Of a stretch of 21,814 nucleotides of DNA, positions 1-21,814 are shown piece by piece; within the stretch, counting starts at the first letter, position 1; every line of letters begins with the position of its first letter. A model generated the notes under the pieces. It had not been told where the DNA came from. It saw only the letters and a list, made by a program, of their open reading frames with translations, and made no database searches. Source of the stretch: a virus; the IMG/VR virus record IMGVR_UViG_3300025122_000186, positions 1 through 21,814 of that record. One strand, written 5' to 3'. A program made the translations under genes and the position numbers.

Positions 1-632
1 GCGGAACACTCAGCGCGAATCTTGTCATCTTGATCACCCTTTTGGTTTTGACGCCACATGATATTATCAATGTATTGATTATTAAGATAATTTTTTAGAT
101 TATCAAAACCGCCACGGATGTTTCGTTCTGAAGTCTTCTTTTGACTACCCCGAGTATTCCAACATGTAGCAGCATCGCGTACATCATCAATTTCTGAATA
201 TGCATTTTCGGAAACTAAAAACAAAAGTACAGCATTTCCTGCTGCACCTTCTTTATCAACAGCTTCTTGTACAGCATCAATAGTATGTTGGCCATCGTAA
301 TGTCCAGTTATACCAGGATTACTACATGTAAATGTTAAATAATTTCCCTGAACTTTCATAGAATCAAAGTCTACGACTGCGCAAACTCCACCATTTCTTA
401 CAGAAAAGCAAACTCCATCTTTGTACTCGTTTTTAATAGCTTTATATAAAGGCGTCGTAGGATCAATATCTCGTGGATTTGGTCCTTTTGGAATTTGAGT
501 TAAACCGTATTCTTCTGTTGGTTCAACCATCGCAACCATTCGTTGAATCGGTTGATTGTCTTGATCTATTGCTTCAACTAGGGGACCGAAAGAGGAACCT
601 CTTTCAAATAATTTTAATTTAATTTCTGTCAT
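1..632 (-). CDS. AIPR-family protein, N-terminal part (runs off left edge)
   Basis: The frame opens with ATG at 632 and stays open for 210 codons to the window edge, so the gene is partial. AGGAG lies six bases before the ATG. I read the segment NPRD (about residue 52), a phenylalanine-plus-NGG stretch (CFSVRNGG) and then GHYDGQHTIDAV, followed by a segment with an asparagine after a helical VRDAATCWN. This order (NPRD, then F..NxG, then DGxHT) is what I know from AIPR (abortive infection phage resistance, PF10592) proteins, which are usually host-encoded and linked to phage defence. Their biochemical role is poorly defined. Here the gene is on a phage, downstream of the gp32-like gene but behind a terminator, so it is probably transcribed separately or by read-through. 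The C-terminal half cannot be seen. The family call is from motif memory; the function of this copy is unknown. Confidence 0.62.
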   Translation of the reverse strand, partial: MTEIKLKLFERGSSFGPLVEAIDQDNQPIQRMVAMVEPTEEYGLTQIPKGPNPRDIDPTTPLYKAIKNEYKDGVCFSVRNGGVCAVVDFDSMKVQGNYLTFTCSNPGITGHYDGQHTIDAVQEAVDKEGAAGNAVLLFLVSENAYSEIDDVRDAATCWNTRGSQKKTSERNIRGGFDNLKNYLNNQYIDNIMWRQNQKGDQDDKIRAECS

Positions 633-681
633 TTTTCTCCTTTTTGGGTAACTGATTCTCTGTGAACCACCCATCTAAATT

Positions 682-730: not shown

Positions 731-1462
731 CTACGCAGACAATTCTTTAATTGCTTCGTCTACACTGCTAACACTGGATTCTTCCGGAAAAGGTCCAGCA
801 GCCGGGTCAAGAAACGATTCGAGAATCGCCTTGACATCGGCGGGAGACTTGCGTTGAAAAAGTGTATCAATCACGGGAACAGCCTCAAGGACTTCCTTAA
901 TTGCACCCTTAGTCTTCGCAAGCGCAGATGATTTTCGCTTCGGCACCAGATTAGTCTGTGGAAATGCACCCTTCGTTTTCGGAAGGGTATATGTCAGCGT
1001 AAAATCTACACCTGAATCCACATCGGTAATATCACCATAATCGGGATTAAGAACCAAACCAAGCAGGGTTTCATAAATGGTCTTACCATATCCCCATACA
1101 CGCACACCAGCTTCTTCTTCACCACGTACAACTACGGGCGTAAAAAATCGCTGTCGAACGAAAAGAGACTTTGCCATTTTCTTGCTATCGTCGGTTCCTT
1201 CTTGCCACAATTTTGAAGCGAAATCACAAATTGGACAGTTTTCACCAAACTGCCGCTTTGGGCAAAGTACACCACCACGCGCACCATCGCCCAAATTATA
1301 ATGAAAATGGAAAACCTTAAACGGATCACCATCTTCGGTGGGAACGAGTCGAATGTCTTGGTCGCCTTCTTGTGGACGCCACCATATATTGTCCGACTTG
1401 GACTTACCACCATTTTCGAGTTCTTGAAGTTTGGCCTTCATTTTTGTCATATCTAATGCCAT
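731..1462 (-). CDS. gp32: gp32-like single-stranded DNA-binding protein
   Basis: The 243-residue product resembles T4 gp32, which coats single-stranded DNA during replication and recombination. The N-terminus is basic and helical (KMKAKLQEL), as in the cooperativity region. A zinc site fits the gp32 pattern: His52 or His54, Cys67, Cys76 and Cys79 (CPKRQFGENCPIC). A core rich in aromatic and basic residues follows (RQRFFTPVVV, VWGYGKTIYE). The tail from about 220 is acidic (EESS, DEAIKEL), as expected for the partner-binding C-terminus. T4 gp32 is 301 residues, so this copy is shorter. ATG at 1462 has AGGAGA ten bases before it, inside an A-rich, unstructured leader, and a hairpin lies further upstream. 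A terminator follows the stop codon. It sits in the replication part of the window, downstream of the family A polymerase. Confidence 0.85.
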   Translation of the reverse strand: MALDMTKMKAKLQELENGGKSKSDNIWWRPQEGDQDIRLVPTEDGDPFKVFHFHYNLGDGARGGVLCPKRQFGENCPICDFASKLWQEGTDDSKKMAKSLFVRQRFFTPVVVRGEEEAGVRVWGYGKTIYETLLGLVLNPDYGDITDVDSGVDFTLTYTLPKTKGAFPQTNLVPKRKSSALAKTKGAIKEVLEAVPVIDTLFQRKSPADVKAILESFLDPAAGPFPEESSVSSVDEAIKELSA

Positions 1463-1522: not shown

Positions 1523-2353
1523 TTATTTTTGTATCATTGATGAATGATTTAAACAGTAAATATAATCTTGTTCATAATCTGTTTCAAATATTCCATAAGT
1601 AACACGAACACCTTCTGCTTTCTTTTCCGAAACTGCTTTTTTTATTTTACCCATTAATTCAAAATCCGATTCAAGTTTGTCTTTATTGTATGTGTAATAA
1701 TACACTATATCAGACACATTGTCAAGAGAAAAAAACATACTATCTTCATTTTTTTCTAGGTCTGACATTCCAATAGTTGTAAGCCGTGCGCCTATAGGTA
1801 AATCACAAAAAGTATCATTTACTGAACTGTTATTTTTATAAACATTAATCATATGAATTGTCGAAACAATCATTTCATTAATCTTTTCGTGATAATTTTT
1901 TATTGAAATGCCTCCAACGATCTGTTCAACTTCTTCATTGGAAACAATATACATTCTTTCAAAAACTCCCGAGCGTGTATATTCTTGAAATACATTATAT
2001 GTCAAACGATCCAATTTTAGTTGTGTTTCGTTTAACAAAGACATTTCTGGTTTAATATAAAGAATGTTTATGTTACATTTTTTCAAATATTGCAATACTT
2101 GTAAAGAAGCCGAAGACATTTTTCCGCCGCCTGCGACGACGAACAAAATATCACCAGTCACATCCTTCAGAAATGCCTTCAATGAGGGAAGTTTTTCTTC
2201 ATAATCTTCAAACTTTTCATGTTCTTTTAGAGGGAAGGTGGTCTTGGTCCGCTTGAGTCCAACGTCCAATTTATAGGTCAAATATTGAGGATATTGAGAG
2301 AACTTATCAGCAATGTTACAACCAGCATTCCCAAGACCGATGACAGTATCCAT
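1523..2353 (-). CDS. Divergent FtsZ/tubulin-like protein
   Basis: The 276-residue protein begins VIGLGNAGCNIADKF, which closely matches the N-terminal nucleotide-binding loop of FtsZ (VIGVGGGGxNAV). At 69-79 a beta strand ends in a glycine loop, ILFVVAGGGKMSS, at the place and spacing where FtsZ and tubulin have FVTAGMGGGTGTGA (the G box). Next come an amphipathic helix (SLQVLQYLKK), a strand with Pro (ILYIKPEM), a helix, a strand ending in Asn (MYIVSNEEV, like the FtsZ loop ending in xxPN), then the long helix 150-172. The G box lacks the second GTG, so nucleotide binding may differ. Length is shorter than bacterial FtsZ (about 380), and there is no acidic tail peptide. Its start overlaps the stop of the MazG-like gene (TAATG), so the two are translationally coupled. 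Phage tubulins (PhuZ, TubZ) make filaments; whether this one polymerises is unknown. A plain Rossmann fold is the main alternative. Confidence 0.5.
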   Translation of the reverse strand: MDTVIGLGNAGCNIADKFSQYPQYLTYKLDVGLKRTKTTFPLKEHEKFEDYEEKLPSLKAFLKDVTGDILFVVAGGGKMSSASLQVLQYLKKCNINILYIKPEMSLLNETQLKLDRLTYNVFQEYTRSGVFERMYIVSNEEVEQIVGGISIKNYHEKINEMIVSTIHMINVYKNNSSVNDTFCDLPIGARLTTIGMSDLEKNEDSMFFSLDNVSDIVYYYTYNKDKLESDFELMGKIKKAVSEKKAEGVRVTYGIFETDYEQDYIYCLNHSSMIQK

Positions 2354-2730
2354 TATTCTTCCTCAAGATATAATGTGTTGGAAGGTGTGTACGAACACCA
2401 TTTACTTTTGGTAACACTCTCATCTTCAATCACTTCTTGCAAAACATAACGGTGCCAAAATGCCCCTCGTTCATGATTTTTTAGAAATCGGGCTTTTGTA
2501 ATGTCCCAACGGTGAGCTTCTTGCAGTGCATTAATAACCTCTTGCACATCGGCCAATTCTTCAACACAAGGGTTCTCAAAAAATTCTTTTGCTTCTTCAA
2601 GGAGTTTATCCTTAAGTCTGTTTTGATAATCTTCACCTGTTGCAACATAAACTTTACATTTTTTTCCTTGTGCCTCGATAATCTCAGGAATTTTATCCCT
2701 TACCAATTTATCATATTTTTTAACTGTCAT
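2353..2730 (-). CDS. MazG-like / phosphoribosyl-ATP-pyrophosphatase-like nucleotide pyrophosphohydrolase
   Basis: The 125-residue protein begins TVKKYDKLVRDKIPEII, the hallmark N-terminus of the all-alpha NTP pyrophosphatase group that includes predicted house-cleaning enzymes. The magnesium-binding acidic motifs are present: EEAKEF (Glu45, Glu46, Glu49) and EELADVQEV (Glu57, Glu58, Asp61). The family's closing segment is visible as KNHERGAFWHRYVL. Such enzymes cut nucleoside triphosphates to monophosphate and pyrophosphate. In phages they may clear unwanted nucleotides or alter host nucleotide signals. A TTG start 12 bases upstream is possible, but ATG at 2730 is preferred, with GAG eight bases before it. 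The start overlaps the end of the methyltransferase gene by 11 bases, and the stop overlaps the next start by one base, so this is an operon. The C-terminal tail from about 100 is extra and unrecognised. Confidence 0.8.
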   Translation of the reverse strand: MTVKKYDKLVRDKIPEIIEAQGKKCKVYVATGEDYQNRLKDKLLEEAKEFFENPCVEELADVQEVINALQEAHRWDITKARFLKNHERGAFWHRYVLQEVIEDESVTKSKWCSYTPSNTLYLEEE

Positions 2731-3676
2731 GTTTAATCTCAAAGCAAAAATTATGTTCGTTGTTTATTTTAGCTGTTACAATTATAGGCTCTTTACTTTC
2801 TGCCAAAGCCCAATGTGTGGAATATCCTATTCGTTTGTTCATTTCCACAATAAGACGATCATTTTGAGCGTGATTATCTTCGTGCAAGAATTCAATCAAT
2901 CTTTTTGTCTGAAGGTCAGTAAACTCTTCATAATAAAGTTGAACAGGAATTAGTGGCGGGAACGACTCTTTAGGATAACACAGATAATCTCCGAAACCGT
3001 CAAAAGACCTACCGTGGTTGTGGAAGGGACTCGGAATAAAATAATCTAATTCCTCGAATACTTTAAAATCAAAACCACCGTCTTCTGGCTTTACAAAGCC
3101 TGGAAAACCTTCATACTTAACATCCAAACCTTCGTGATAGCCAATTAACCAAGTGGGCCTCACTTTTTCAATGATATTTTTCATGCCATGTAAGGCCAGA
3201 GTTTCCATTCCTTCGATATCCATTTTTACAAAATCGGGTGGCGGAAGATTATTTTCTTTCACAAAATCATCTAAAACAACATATTTAATTTCTCTTTCTT
3301 GAGGGGGAAGCCCTGTACAATCATCAAATTTTGTCTTTATAATATGTTTCTTGTTGCTAACTGCGACATCAAAAAGTTTTATGTTATCATAAGGTTCACA
3401 ATTTTTTTTCGCTCTCTCAAAATTATCAGGAAAGCCTTCAATGGAATAAACCTGCATACCAGCTATTGCTGCTGGAATTGACCACGTACCAATATAGGCT
3501 CCAATATCATAAAGAACATCGCCAGGTCTTATAGATTTAAAGAAGTGGTCTAAACGATGGTCATCTCGATTATATAAATCACCACTCAGAATATGTTGAT
3601 CTAAATTTTCCTCACCTGAAATGAGGTCATGGAATTTAATTGAGTGGCCATTAAATTTAATAATCTTATCAGTCAT
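2720..3676 (-). CDS. FkbM-family SAM-dependent methyltransferase
   Basis: The 318-residue protein has the FkbM layout. It shows the S-adenosylmethionine loop VLYDIGAYIGTWSI at 54-67, an acidic strand end VYSIEGFPDNF at 76-86, a D-x-A strand (LFDVAVSN), then VVLDDFV and the family hallmark DFVKMDIEGMETLAL at 148-162. FkbM enzymes transfer a methyl group to oxygen on small molecules or sugars, so the target could be a glycan or a phage or host metabolite; nothing here identifies it. Residues from about 240 to the end form an extra C-terminal part that I do not recognise. ATG at 3676 is nine bases after the polymerase stop, with AGAGAA before it, so it is probably co-transcribed. It looks like an auxiliary gene carried in the replication operon. 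Confidence 0.85.
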   Translation of the reverse strand: MTDKIIKFNGHSIKFHDLISGEENLDQHILSGDLYNRDDHRLDHFFKSIRPGDVLYDIGAYIGTWSIPAAIAGMQVYSIEGFPDNFERAKKNCEPYDNIKLFDVAVSNKKHIIKTKFDDCTGLPPQEREIKYVVLDDFVKENNLPPPDFVKMDIEGMETLALHGMKNIIEKVRPTWLIGYHEGLDVKYEGFPGFVKPEDGGFDFKVFEELDYFIPSPFHNHGRSFDGFGDYLCYPKESFPPLIPVQLYYEEFTDLQTKRLIEFLHEDNHAQNDRLIVEMNKRIGYSTHWALAESKEPIIVTAKINNEHNFCFEIKHDS

Positions 3677-3685
3677 AATTGTTCT

Positions 3686-4888
3686 CTATTTAAACCTCGT
3701 CATGTTACCAAAATGTGTTCCAAGACTGACATTAACTTTAAAAATACCTAAATCGGTATTTCCAAATTCCTTTACCAAATTATCGATCAAACCTTTGTCT
3801 TCGCGAGCAAAGTCAATCACCATACTATCATGAATTAGGCCCATCGTAAAGGATTTTTTGCCTTTTAATAATTTATTTACTGCGATTGCTCTCCTTAAAA
3901 AAGTGTCTGAAGTTGTACTTTGAATAATAGCATTCAAAGCGTGGAATTCGTCAGCTTTAATTTTTCTTCCAAAAGAATTTATGACTTCTTCTCCATTCCA
4001 ATATTTTTTAATAGCCTTCTTCTTATCATAATACTTTTCAATCTGAGGAATGCCAAGAGAAGCATCCAGTGGCCCATATAACCATCCAAAGATCTTGCGC
4101 TTAATATCGTTTCTATCTAAATTTTTATCAGAAAGTCGATTTAGAATAAAACCATGCCAATCATGGATATCTTCATCTGGTTGTTTTTGATTATTTAATG
4201 CCAACAAACACCTAAGCTCTGCTGCATTGAAATCTAATTCAATAAACCAATCGTTCTGAGGTTTGATAATCTTTCTATAGTTTTTATCTAATGTTAAGAT
4301 TGGAAACGAATCTTTCTTTGTTGTTAGTCGTCCTGTGATTGTTCCAAACACATTATAAGAAATGTGCTGTCGAAGACGGCGAAGCTTTTCTTTAAAATTT
4401 CTTGTCCGCAATTCATGTAGATCATTATCAAGTGCATCCAAATCAATATTAAGATTGTGATTTTCTATCTCTGCAACAAGTTCTGAGAGTTCTATTAAAA
4501 ATTCATAGTTCTCTGGCTTATCATAAGAATTTAAAACATAATCTGTAATCTGAGATTTCATATCAAAATATTCAATAACAAAAGATTCAGGCACAAGATC
4601 ATAAAAACAATAATCATTAAATTTAACCTTTGCTTCTTCAAAAGATTTAATATAAGCAAAATGTTTTTGCTTGACTTCTTCCCAGTTTTCTTTTAAACTA
4701 TCAGGACAACACTGCTCAAGGTTCTGACCTTGAGCATATAGATAAGCATATTTAATATCTTGATCTTTTAAAATTGAATTATATGACCAGGTTTTTGAAA
4801 GCTTATTATATTCTGGTTTAGATATAATTTCTTTATTTGTATAGATGCTTGCACATTGTTGTTTGTTATCTATTATTTGAAATAACAT
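3686..4888 (-). CDS. Short family A (PolA-type) DNA polymerase, polymerase domain only
   Basis: This 400-residue protein carries the full catalytic set of family A polymerases. TGRLTT at 185-190 matches the TGRLSS element. Motif A is DFNAAELRCLLAL (catalytic Asp219; Glu224 steric gate). DIHDWHG matches the conserved DIH. Motif B is RNDIKRKIFGWLYG, with Arg259, Lys263, Phe267 and Tyr271 at the usual 4-residue spacing. SFGRK at 305-309 matches the GRR turn, and motif C is LIHDSMVID (His353, Asp354), with Ser in place of the usual Glu. The first 150 residues show no recognisable 3'-5' exonuclease motifs and there is no 5' nuclease domain, so it is far shorter than bacterial Pol I (about 930). 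T4 itself uses a family B polymerase. I recall that the far-T4 phage RM378 has its polymerase and exonuclease in separate genes, which would fit. There is no clear ribosome binding site; see the promoter entry. Confidence 0.88.
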   Translation of the reverse strand: MLFQIIDNKQQCASIYTNKEIISKPEYNKLSKTWSYNSILKDQDIKYAYLYAQGQNLEQCCPDSLKENWEEVKQKHFAYIKSFEEAKVKFNDYCFYDLVPESFVIEYFDMKSQITDYVLNSYDKPENYEFLIELSELVAEIENHNLNIDLDALDNDLHELRTRNFKEKLRRLRQHISYNVFGTITGRLTTKKDSFPILTLDKNYRKIIKPQNDWFIELDFNAAELRCLLALNNQKQPDEDIHDWHGFILNRLSDKNLDRNDIKRKIFGWLYGPLDASLGIPQIEKYYDKKKAIKKYWNGEEVINSFGRKIKADEFHALNAIIQSTTSDTFLRRAIAVNKLLKGKKSFTMGLIHDSMVIDFAREDKGLIDNLVKEFGNTDLGIFKVNVSLGTHFGNMTRFK

Positions 4889-4895
4889 ATTTTAT

Positions 4896-4924
4896 ATCAT
4901 ATCATATTTTTTTGATGCGGTCAA
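4896..4924 (-). promoter_or_regulatory. Sigma70-like promoter for the polymerase gene
   Basis: On the minus strand TTGACC (4924-4919) is followed by a 17-base spacer and TATGAT (4901-4896). These are near-consensus -35 and -10 boxes at optimal spacing. The -35 overlaps the last codon and the TGA of the 730-residue virion gene. The expected start point falls at about 4889-4890, on or just before the ATG at 4888, so the message would be leaderless. That agrees with the absence of a ribosome binding site. It would let replication genes be transcribed independently of the virion operon. Confidence 0.6.
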
Positions 4925-21217: not shown

Positions 21218-21814
21218 TTAGACAAGATCTTCGACAACAACAAGACCATACATATCTGGTCGAACCATCTTCTTACCGTAACGGGTCATAACGCCCTTAC
21301 GAGGTACAAAATCCTCTGTACCAAAGATAGTCGGAGTAACTTGCAGCGGCACATAAGGTGCATATACATAGCCACTCTCAAGGAAGCTACTGCCCTTACG
21401 TCCTACCAATAACAAGTTACGTGGGAAATACGGGTCAACGTAAATATCCCATTTCTTGCTAATTGCGCCGACTTTAACAGCACCAGCGGTGCCCTTGTTT
21501 TCGTCAGCAGTCGTATCAGCACGGAATCCAGCAGTAAATTCAAGAACATTCGCAACTTCTGGGCTTGTAACAATAAAGTTAGCCCCACCACGAAGCGTCT
21601 TGCGATGAATATTTGCTGAAACGTCATTGACAGTTTCAAGCAAAGTCTCATACCACTCAGACACAGTTCCAGTAAAGTCTGGATGTAGCGAAGTGTTAAT
21701 AGGCGTACCAGCACTAAGTCCCTGTCCTGAACGTTGTACAAACTTACCCGGTCTTCGCGACCAGTAATAAGTTCCAGCAGTTGAACCCTTCACGAGATCC
21801 TCAAGAATTTCTTG
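21218..21814 (-). CDS. gp23: Major capsid protein, gp23-like, C-terminal part (runs off right edge)
   Basis: The frame is open to the last base of the window, so about 199 C-terminal residues are present and the start is outside. The visible part has the T4 gp23 core: GANFIVTSPEVANVLE, DIYVDPYFPRNLLLVGRKGS, GYVYAPYVPLQVTPTIFG, FVPRKGVMTRYGKKM and the final MYGLVVVEDL. These match the gp23 segments 'ASP.VA..L', 'DPY.....LVG.KG', 'YAPYVPL' and 'TRYG'. The protein forms the hexamers of the icosahedral head and is probably matured by cleavage of its N-terminus, which is not in view. A GTG at 21793 is internal, not a start. A strong terminator follows, and the neck genes begin right after it. Confidence 0.95.
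   Translation of the reverse strand, partial: QEILEDLVKGSTAGTYYWSRRPGKFVQRSGQGLSAGTPINTSLHPDFTGTVSEWYETLLETVNDVSANIHRKTLRGGANFIVTSPEVANVLEFTAGFRADTTADENKGTAGAVKVGAISKKWDIYVDPYFPRNLLLVGRKGSSFLESGYVYAPYVPLQVTPTIFGTEDFVPRKGVMTRYGKKMVRPDMYGLVVVEDLV

What the first reader, a model, noticed from the sequence alone, without database searches (positions are those of the whole stretch)
3686..4888. Minimal polymerase-only family A DNA polymerase in a T4-type genome
All palm and fingers motifs are present (Asp219, Lys263, Phe267, Tyr271, Asp354), but there are no recognisable exonuclease motifs in the first 150 residues and the whole protein is 400 residues. T4 itself uses a family B polymerase. The motif C has Ser where Pol I has Glu. 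A separate proofreading exonuclease gene elsewhere in the genome is predicted, as I recall for phage RM378.
Basis: partly seen in the sequence, partly recalled or inferred. Interest (0 to 1): 0.6.

Follow-up and report, generated by a model that had tools for sequence, protein, structure and literature searches.

The report
Accessory exonuclease-less phage DNA polymerase
A T4-like marine phage carries a stripped-down DNA polymerase with no proofreading part, but its relatives also carry a full bacterial-type replicase, so the small enzyme is most likely a helper rather than the main copying machine, and it appears to match a helper polymerase class described in 2024.

Summary
In detail: the minus-strand ORF 3686-4888 encodes a 400-aa family A polymerase with every palm and fingers residue named, HDS at motif C and no exonuclease motifs. 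Sampled full-length relatives are 391-405 aa. (1) RM378 is not a precedent for a split family A enzyme: its separate exonuclease and polymerase proteins are both family B, and it has no family A polymerase. (2) The protein is probably not the replicase. All 19 relatives with at least 20 kb downstream of polA also encode a ~1130-aa family C polymerase (DnaE). The close relatives' DnaE proteins keep all nine metal ligands of the PHP domain, so proofreading can sit there. No DEDD exonuclease or family B polymerase was found. (3) Homology and gene order tie it to divPolA1 of Flavobacterium phage immuto_3-5A (Yutin et al. 2024, PMC11348598), a second polymerase beside a regular replicase, so the kind is known. 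Most likely job: gap filling with the stand-alone 5'-3' exonuclease encoded nearby, together a split Pol I (inferred). Unexpected: a tubulin/FtsZ-fold protein is encoded just downstream of polA in all 90 testable loci. The window lacks its own dnaE, so points 2 and 3 rest on relatives.

The parts
3686..4888 (-). 400-aa family A DNA polymerase, polymerase domain without exonuclease domains (divPolA1-like)
   Evidence: PF00476 49.6 bits; invariant motifs; AF2 model pLDDT 92.3 and Foldseek hits to family A polymerases, E about 1e-12
4896..4924 (-). sigma-70-like promoter TTGACC-17-TATGAT ending 7 nt before the polA ATG, suggesting an almost leaderless transcript that opens the replication module
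   Evidence: the same 17-nt spacing and 6-8 nt gap in 14 of 22 close-clade loci; not tested experimentally
2720..3676 (-). FkbM-type methyltransferase inserted just after polA; variable between relatives
   Evidence: PF05050 44.9 bits; many relatives have the next gene here instead
2353..2742 (-). 129-aa protein of KYDKLVRDKIPEII type, probably a MazG/HisE-like nucleotide pyrophosphohydrolase (by sequence pattern only)
   Evidence: ortholog beside polA in G001/G002; no Pfam match over cut-off
1523..2353 (-). 276-aa tubulin/FtsZ-superfamily fold protein, always just downstream of polA
   Evidence: 90 of 90 testable loci; AF2 pLDDT 94.7; Foldseek top hit TubZ 2xka E 3e-13, TM 0.74
731..1462 (-). 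gp32-like single-strand DNA-binding protein
   Evidence: PF08804 53.9 bits; phrog_1192 89.7 bits
15180..18293 (-). tail sheath (genome-type marker)
   Evidence: phrog_23 223 bits; RM378 sheath E 4e-43
21218..21814 (-). gp23-like major capsid protein, partial (genome-type marker)
   Evidence: RM378 gp23 E 1e-31, immuto gp23 E 3e-50

Best explanation
The protein is an accessory family A DNA polymerase of a Far-T4-type phage, orthologous to divPolA1 of Flavobacterium phage immuto_3-5A, with no functional 3'-5' or 5'-3' exonuclease domain. The genome's replicase is most likely a separately encoded family C polymerase (DnaE) with an intact PHP proofreading site. The small polymerase most likely fills gaps left when the stand-alone 5'-3' exonuclease of the same module removes RNA primers and flaps. 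The two genes together would do the job that bacterial Pol I does in one chain, on gp32-coated DNA. Shown: motifs, conserved length, absence of exonuclease motifs, co-occurrence with dnaE and the 5'-3' exonuclease, gene order. Inferred: catalytic activity, division of labour, gap-filling role, and presence of dnaE in the window's own genome.
For: All catalytic residues invariant. DnaE in 21 records, including all 19 with at least 20 kb downstream of polA. DnaE is a full 1130-aa protein with PHP, palm, fingers and HHH domains. PHP ligands are intact in the close clade, matching the 'active' motif HHDHEH[C/H]DH of PMC12926913. Stand-alone 5'-3' exonuclease (PF02739) in 14 of 27 records. In G001 the order is polA, small gene, tubulin-like, SSB, UvsX, 5'-3' exo, DnaB, RNR. 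Immuto has the same order from SSB on. Immuto divPolA1 aligns with residues 98-387 (HHalign E 3e-11, phmmer E 1e-9 to G002). The window sits inside a PolA clade whose members carry DnaE.
Against: The window fragment ends before dnaE would be reached, so its own genome is not shown to have one. PolA is in the core replication operon while the regular polymerase is the part that varies between divPolA1 phages (PMC11348598), which could mean a role at the fork itself. No activity of any family member is known. PolA and the 5'-3' exonuclease are near each other but not adjacent. All five DnaE phages tested outside this group lack PolA, so DnaE phages do not need such a partner in general.
Confidence: 0.6

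Rival explanations
1. The small PolA is a core fork enzyme (primer extension or lagging-strand synthesis, or even the main replicase), and the DnaE is secondary.
For: It sits in the conserved replication operon with SSB, UvsX, 5'-3' exonuclease and DnaB, while in divPolA1 phages the other polymerase is family A, B or C and its neighbourhood is looser (PMC11348598). A conserved promoter opens the unit at polA.
Against: No proofreading domain and no partner exonuclease found; a complete PHP-DnaE is present wherever enough sequence is held.
Confidence: 0.2
2. A low-fidelity polymerase for recombination or lesion bypass (like APEX/PolA2 or Pol theta/nu), acting with UvsX.
For: Exonuclease lost; UvsX and SSB two to three genes away; Foldseek matches include Pol nu and Pol theta; inactive-exo PolA2 is thought to be low-fidelity (PMC12926913).
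Against: Foldseek hits to Pol nu and theta are no better than to Klenow, Bst or apPol; their special insertions were not seen or tested; the neighbouring 5'-3' exonuclease fits Pol I-type work at least as well.
Confidence: 0.15
3. It is the sole replicase, and proofreading comes from a separate exonuclease.
For: The window shows no other polymerase; no family B polymerase in 20 relatives.
Against: DnaE in 21 relatives; no DEDD exonuclease found; RM378's parts are family B.
Confidence: 0.05

Closest known systems
[quoted passage not shown] 2024, PMC11348598)
   Same: Extra family A polymerase beside a regular replicase; homologous over residues 98-387; same downstream SSB, RecA/UvsX, 5'-3' exo and DnaB order; T4-like tail genes upstream.
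   Different: Immuto's is 441 aa with a divergent active site (TYDAF at motif C, histidine at the E710 position); its regular polymerase is family A (777 aa) rather than DnaE; it lacks the tubulin-like neighbour in the parts read.
Rhodothermus phage RM378 split polymerase
   Same: Distantly related Far-T4 genome (gp23, gp20, gp17, sheath, DnaB, 5'-3' exo, RNR); exonuclease and polymerase activities on separate chains.
   Different: Both RM378 chains are family B and it has no family A polymerase.
E. coli Pol I / Klenow fragment
   Same: Same polymerase core and motif spacing to the C-terminus.
   Different: No 3'-5' exonuclease domain and no fused 5'-3' exonuclease; motif C HDS instead of HDE; about 30 residues shorter between motifs B and C (inferred from residue numbers).
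PolA2/APEX of Actinobacteria (PMC12926913)
   Same: Accessory family A polymerase without proofreading.
   Different: PolA2 keeps a vestigial exonuclease domain with a beta-clamp motif; not sought here.

Membership tests
Family A DNA polymerase | Motifs A, B and C with the two metal-binding aspartates, in the family A fold | tested here: met
Pol I (PolA1) | Fused 5'-3' exonuclease domain | tested here: not met
   400-aa ORF with no upstream extension; the 5'-3' exonuclease is a separate gene in relatives
Pol I (PolA1) | DnaQ-like 3'-5' exonuclease domain, active or inactive | tested here: inconclusive
   No motif, no profile match, no sheet in the model; an eroded remnant cannot be excluded
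divPolA1 | Homology to the published proteins | tested here: met
   immuto gene 1, HHalign E 3e-11 over residues 98-387; phmmer E 1e-9. The marine members (MK892584, LR796625) are not in the collections
divPolA1 | Present in addition to a regular DNA polymerase | tested here: met
   In relatives: DnaE in 19 of 19 records with enough sequence; not visible in the window fragment
divPolA1 | Conserved replication genes directly downstream | tested here: met
divPolA1 | Inactivated 3'-5' exonuclease domain and truncated thumb | tested here: inconclusive
RM378-type split polymerase | Family B palm and family B exonuclease on separate chains | tested here: not met

The most novel reading that the evidence does not exclude
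The polymerase and the tubulin/FtsZ-fold protein encoded just after it form a functional unit, so that DNA synthesis or repair in these phages is tied to a tubulin-like protein.
Probability: 0.12. Interest if true: 0.75.

Novelty: new member of a known kind. Interest (0 to 1): 0.42.

Why it matters
It corrects a tempting reading (a proofreading-less replicase in a T4-type phage) and extends divPolA1, described from 14 genomes, to a family with at least 373 relatives in IMG/VR, always near full length where sampled. Taken with RM378 and immuto, related T4-like phages use family B, A or C replicases, while divPolA1 is kept in at least two of these lineages. A cultured relative (immuto on Flavobacterium sp. 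LMO8) makes the accessory polymerase's role directly testable.

Tried and rejected
Direct tblastn of the protein against named phages at 1e-5: no match; at E up to 10 only ordinary longer PolAs covering about half the query. The PF01612 hit in G001 (E 0.014) covers 39 profile positions with a stop inside: rejected. The N-terminus as an exonuclease domain: HHalign probability 0.15% against Klenow, with no usable signal to immuto's N-terminus either. PF10108 as the missing exonuclease: it picked up the RM378 and PAK_P3 proteins weakly but nothing in 12 records of this group. DnaE plus PolA as a general phage habit: five other DnaE phages have no PolA. RNA-polymerase reading: not favoured because the E710 steric-gate glutamate is kept (E224; the role of E710 is general knowledge).

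Full report
What is there. The window is a complete 21.8-kb IMG/VR virus record. The ORF at 3686-4888 is on the minus strand and encodes 400 aa. It matches Pfam DNA_pol_A above the curated cut-off. The open frame is 401 codons, so no upstream exonuclease domain is hidden in frame. HHalign puts residues 176-394 on E. coli Pol I 657-925, with D219/D705, K263/K758, F267/F762, Y271/Y766, D354/D882 and S355/E883. Their length is almost constant, 391-405 aa.

Exonuclease. Residues 1-125 have no detectable similarity to the Klenow 3'-5' exonuclease domain. The AlphaFold2 model is confident throughout (pLDDT 92.3), and its first 60 residues hold only strands of one to three residues. Foldseek finds family A polymerases at E about 1e-12, with query TM-scores mostly 0.55-0.69. 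I had no coordinates, so an eroded exonuclease remnant is possible. Yutin et al. describe an inactivated exonuclease domain in divPolA1 (PMC11348598).

The RM378 comparison. I fetched the RM378 genome. Its 313-aa 'DNA polymerase' is a family B exonuclease domain alone (PF03104). Its 522-aa 'similar to DNA-directed DNA polymerase' is a family B palm alone (PF00136). RM378 has no PF00476. The split architecture is real, but it is a family B split, so it is not a precedent for a family A enzyme.

The replicase. Two relatives of 151.6 and 156.6 kb (G001, G002; PolA 65% and 69% identical) share gp23, gp20, gp17, gp21, sheath, tube, DnaB-type helicase, 5'-3' exonuclease and RNR with RM378. G001 encodes a 1130-aa DNA polymerase III alpha with PHP, palm, fingers and HHH domains. 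PF07733 was then found in 9 of 27 close records and 12 of 20 more distant ones. Plotted against available sequence, all 19 records with 20 kb or more downstream of polA have it, 11.6-22.1 kb away; the 17 records without it end sooner. The window is nested among DnaE-bearing relatives in a FastTree tree, with local support 0.86 and above from the 15-tip clade outward apart from one weak node. In the 11 close-clade DnaE sequences matched, all nine PHP ligands are present (checked by eye). Intact PHP sites proofread in M. tuberculosis DnaE1 (PMC5636811). No family B polymerase was found in 20 records, and no PF00929, PF01612 (over cut-off) or PF03104 exonuclease.

The known relative. Yutin et al. 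2024 described divPolA1, a second, diverged PolA in 14 phages that also encode a regular polymerase of family A, B or C (PMC11348598). Immuto_3-5A gene 1, the 441-aa divPolA1, aligns with the window's protein over residues 98-387 at E 3e-11. Downstream, immuto has SSB, RecA, 5'-3' exonuclease, DnaB and RNR, as in G001; upstream lie the same tail genes. Immuto is also closer than RM378 in TerL (513 v. 211 bits), gp20 and gp23. I therefore treat the window's protein as a divPolA1 ortholog. The marine divPolA1 records could not be tested, because they are not in the collections.

How it most likely works. A stand-alone 5'-3' exonuclease lies about 3.7 kb downstream of polA in G001 and was found in 14 of 27 records. 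Bacteria that lack Pol I nearly always keep a stand-alone 5'-3' exonuclease (PMC12926913). A DnaE replicase needs something to replace RNA primers. The economical model is that polymerase and exonuclease act as a two-gene Pol I. This is inference: no activity has been measured.

The neighbour. A 276-aa protein is encoded directly downstream of polA, or after one or two small genes, in 90 of 90 testable loci (some contigs were fetched twice, so independent cases are fewer). Its model (pLDDT 94.7) matches TubZ and FtsZ, although Pfam hardly sees it (one of 44 members at E 0.035). The GGGTGTG signature is degenerate in the consensus, so normal GTPase activity is doubtful. It was not found in RM378 or in the parts of immuto read.

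Limits. The window does not reach dnaE. G001 and G002 have no end repeats and may be incomplete. Profile searches can miss a very diverged exonuclease. Fidelity, clamp binding and activity are untested.

Noticed in passing
window 1523-2353 (-): Tubulin/FtsZ-fold protein (Foldseek top hit TubZ, E 3e-13) with a degenerate signature loop, just downstream of polA in all 90 testable loci; not found in RM378 or in the parts of immuto_3-5A read.
   Followed up: partly
window 4896-4924 (-): TTGAC-N17-TATGAT promoter-like site ending 6-8 nt before the polA start codon in the window and 14 of 22 close relatives, which would give a nearly leaderless transcript at the tail/replication module boundary.
   Followed up: partly
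L167 3704-9063 (CP070664.1, WOR-3 bacterium MAG): A polA/tubulin-like/gp32/recA-like phage stretch sits between runs of N inside a MAG 'chromosome', probably a phage contig scaffolded into it by mistake.
   Followed up: partly
L051 21996-22937 (RM378 p024): Annotated 'DNA polymerase' but holds only a family B exonuclease domain; the palm is p092, 57 kb away.
   Followed up: yes
window 2720-3676 (-): FkbM-type methyltransferase between polA and the next conserved gene; this slot differs between relatives.
   Followed up: no
window 3-674 (-): Partial 224-aa ORF after gp32 with no counterpart in G001 or G002, where uvsX is the next gene.
   Followed up: no
immuto_3-5A gene 1 (L172 1-1326): divPolA1 there has lost the motif C histidine and the E710-equivalent glutamate (DFDGYHLR, TYDAF), unlike the marine family, so the two branches may differ in activity.
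   Followed up: no
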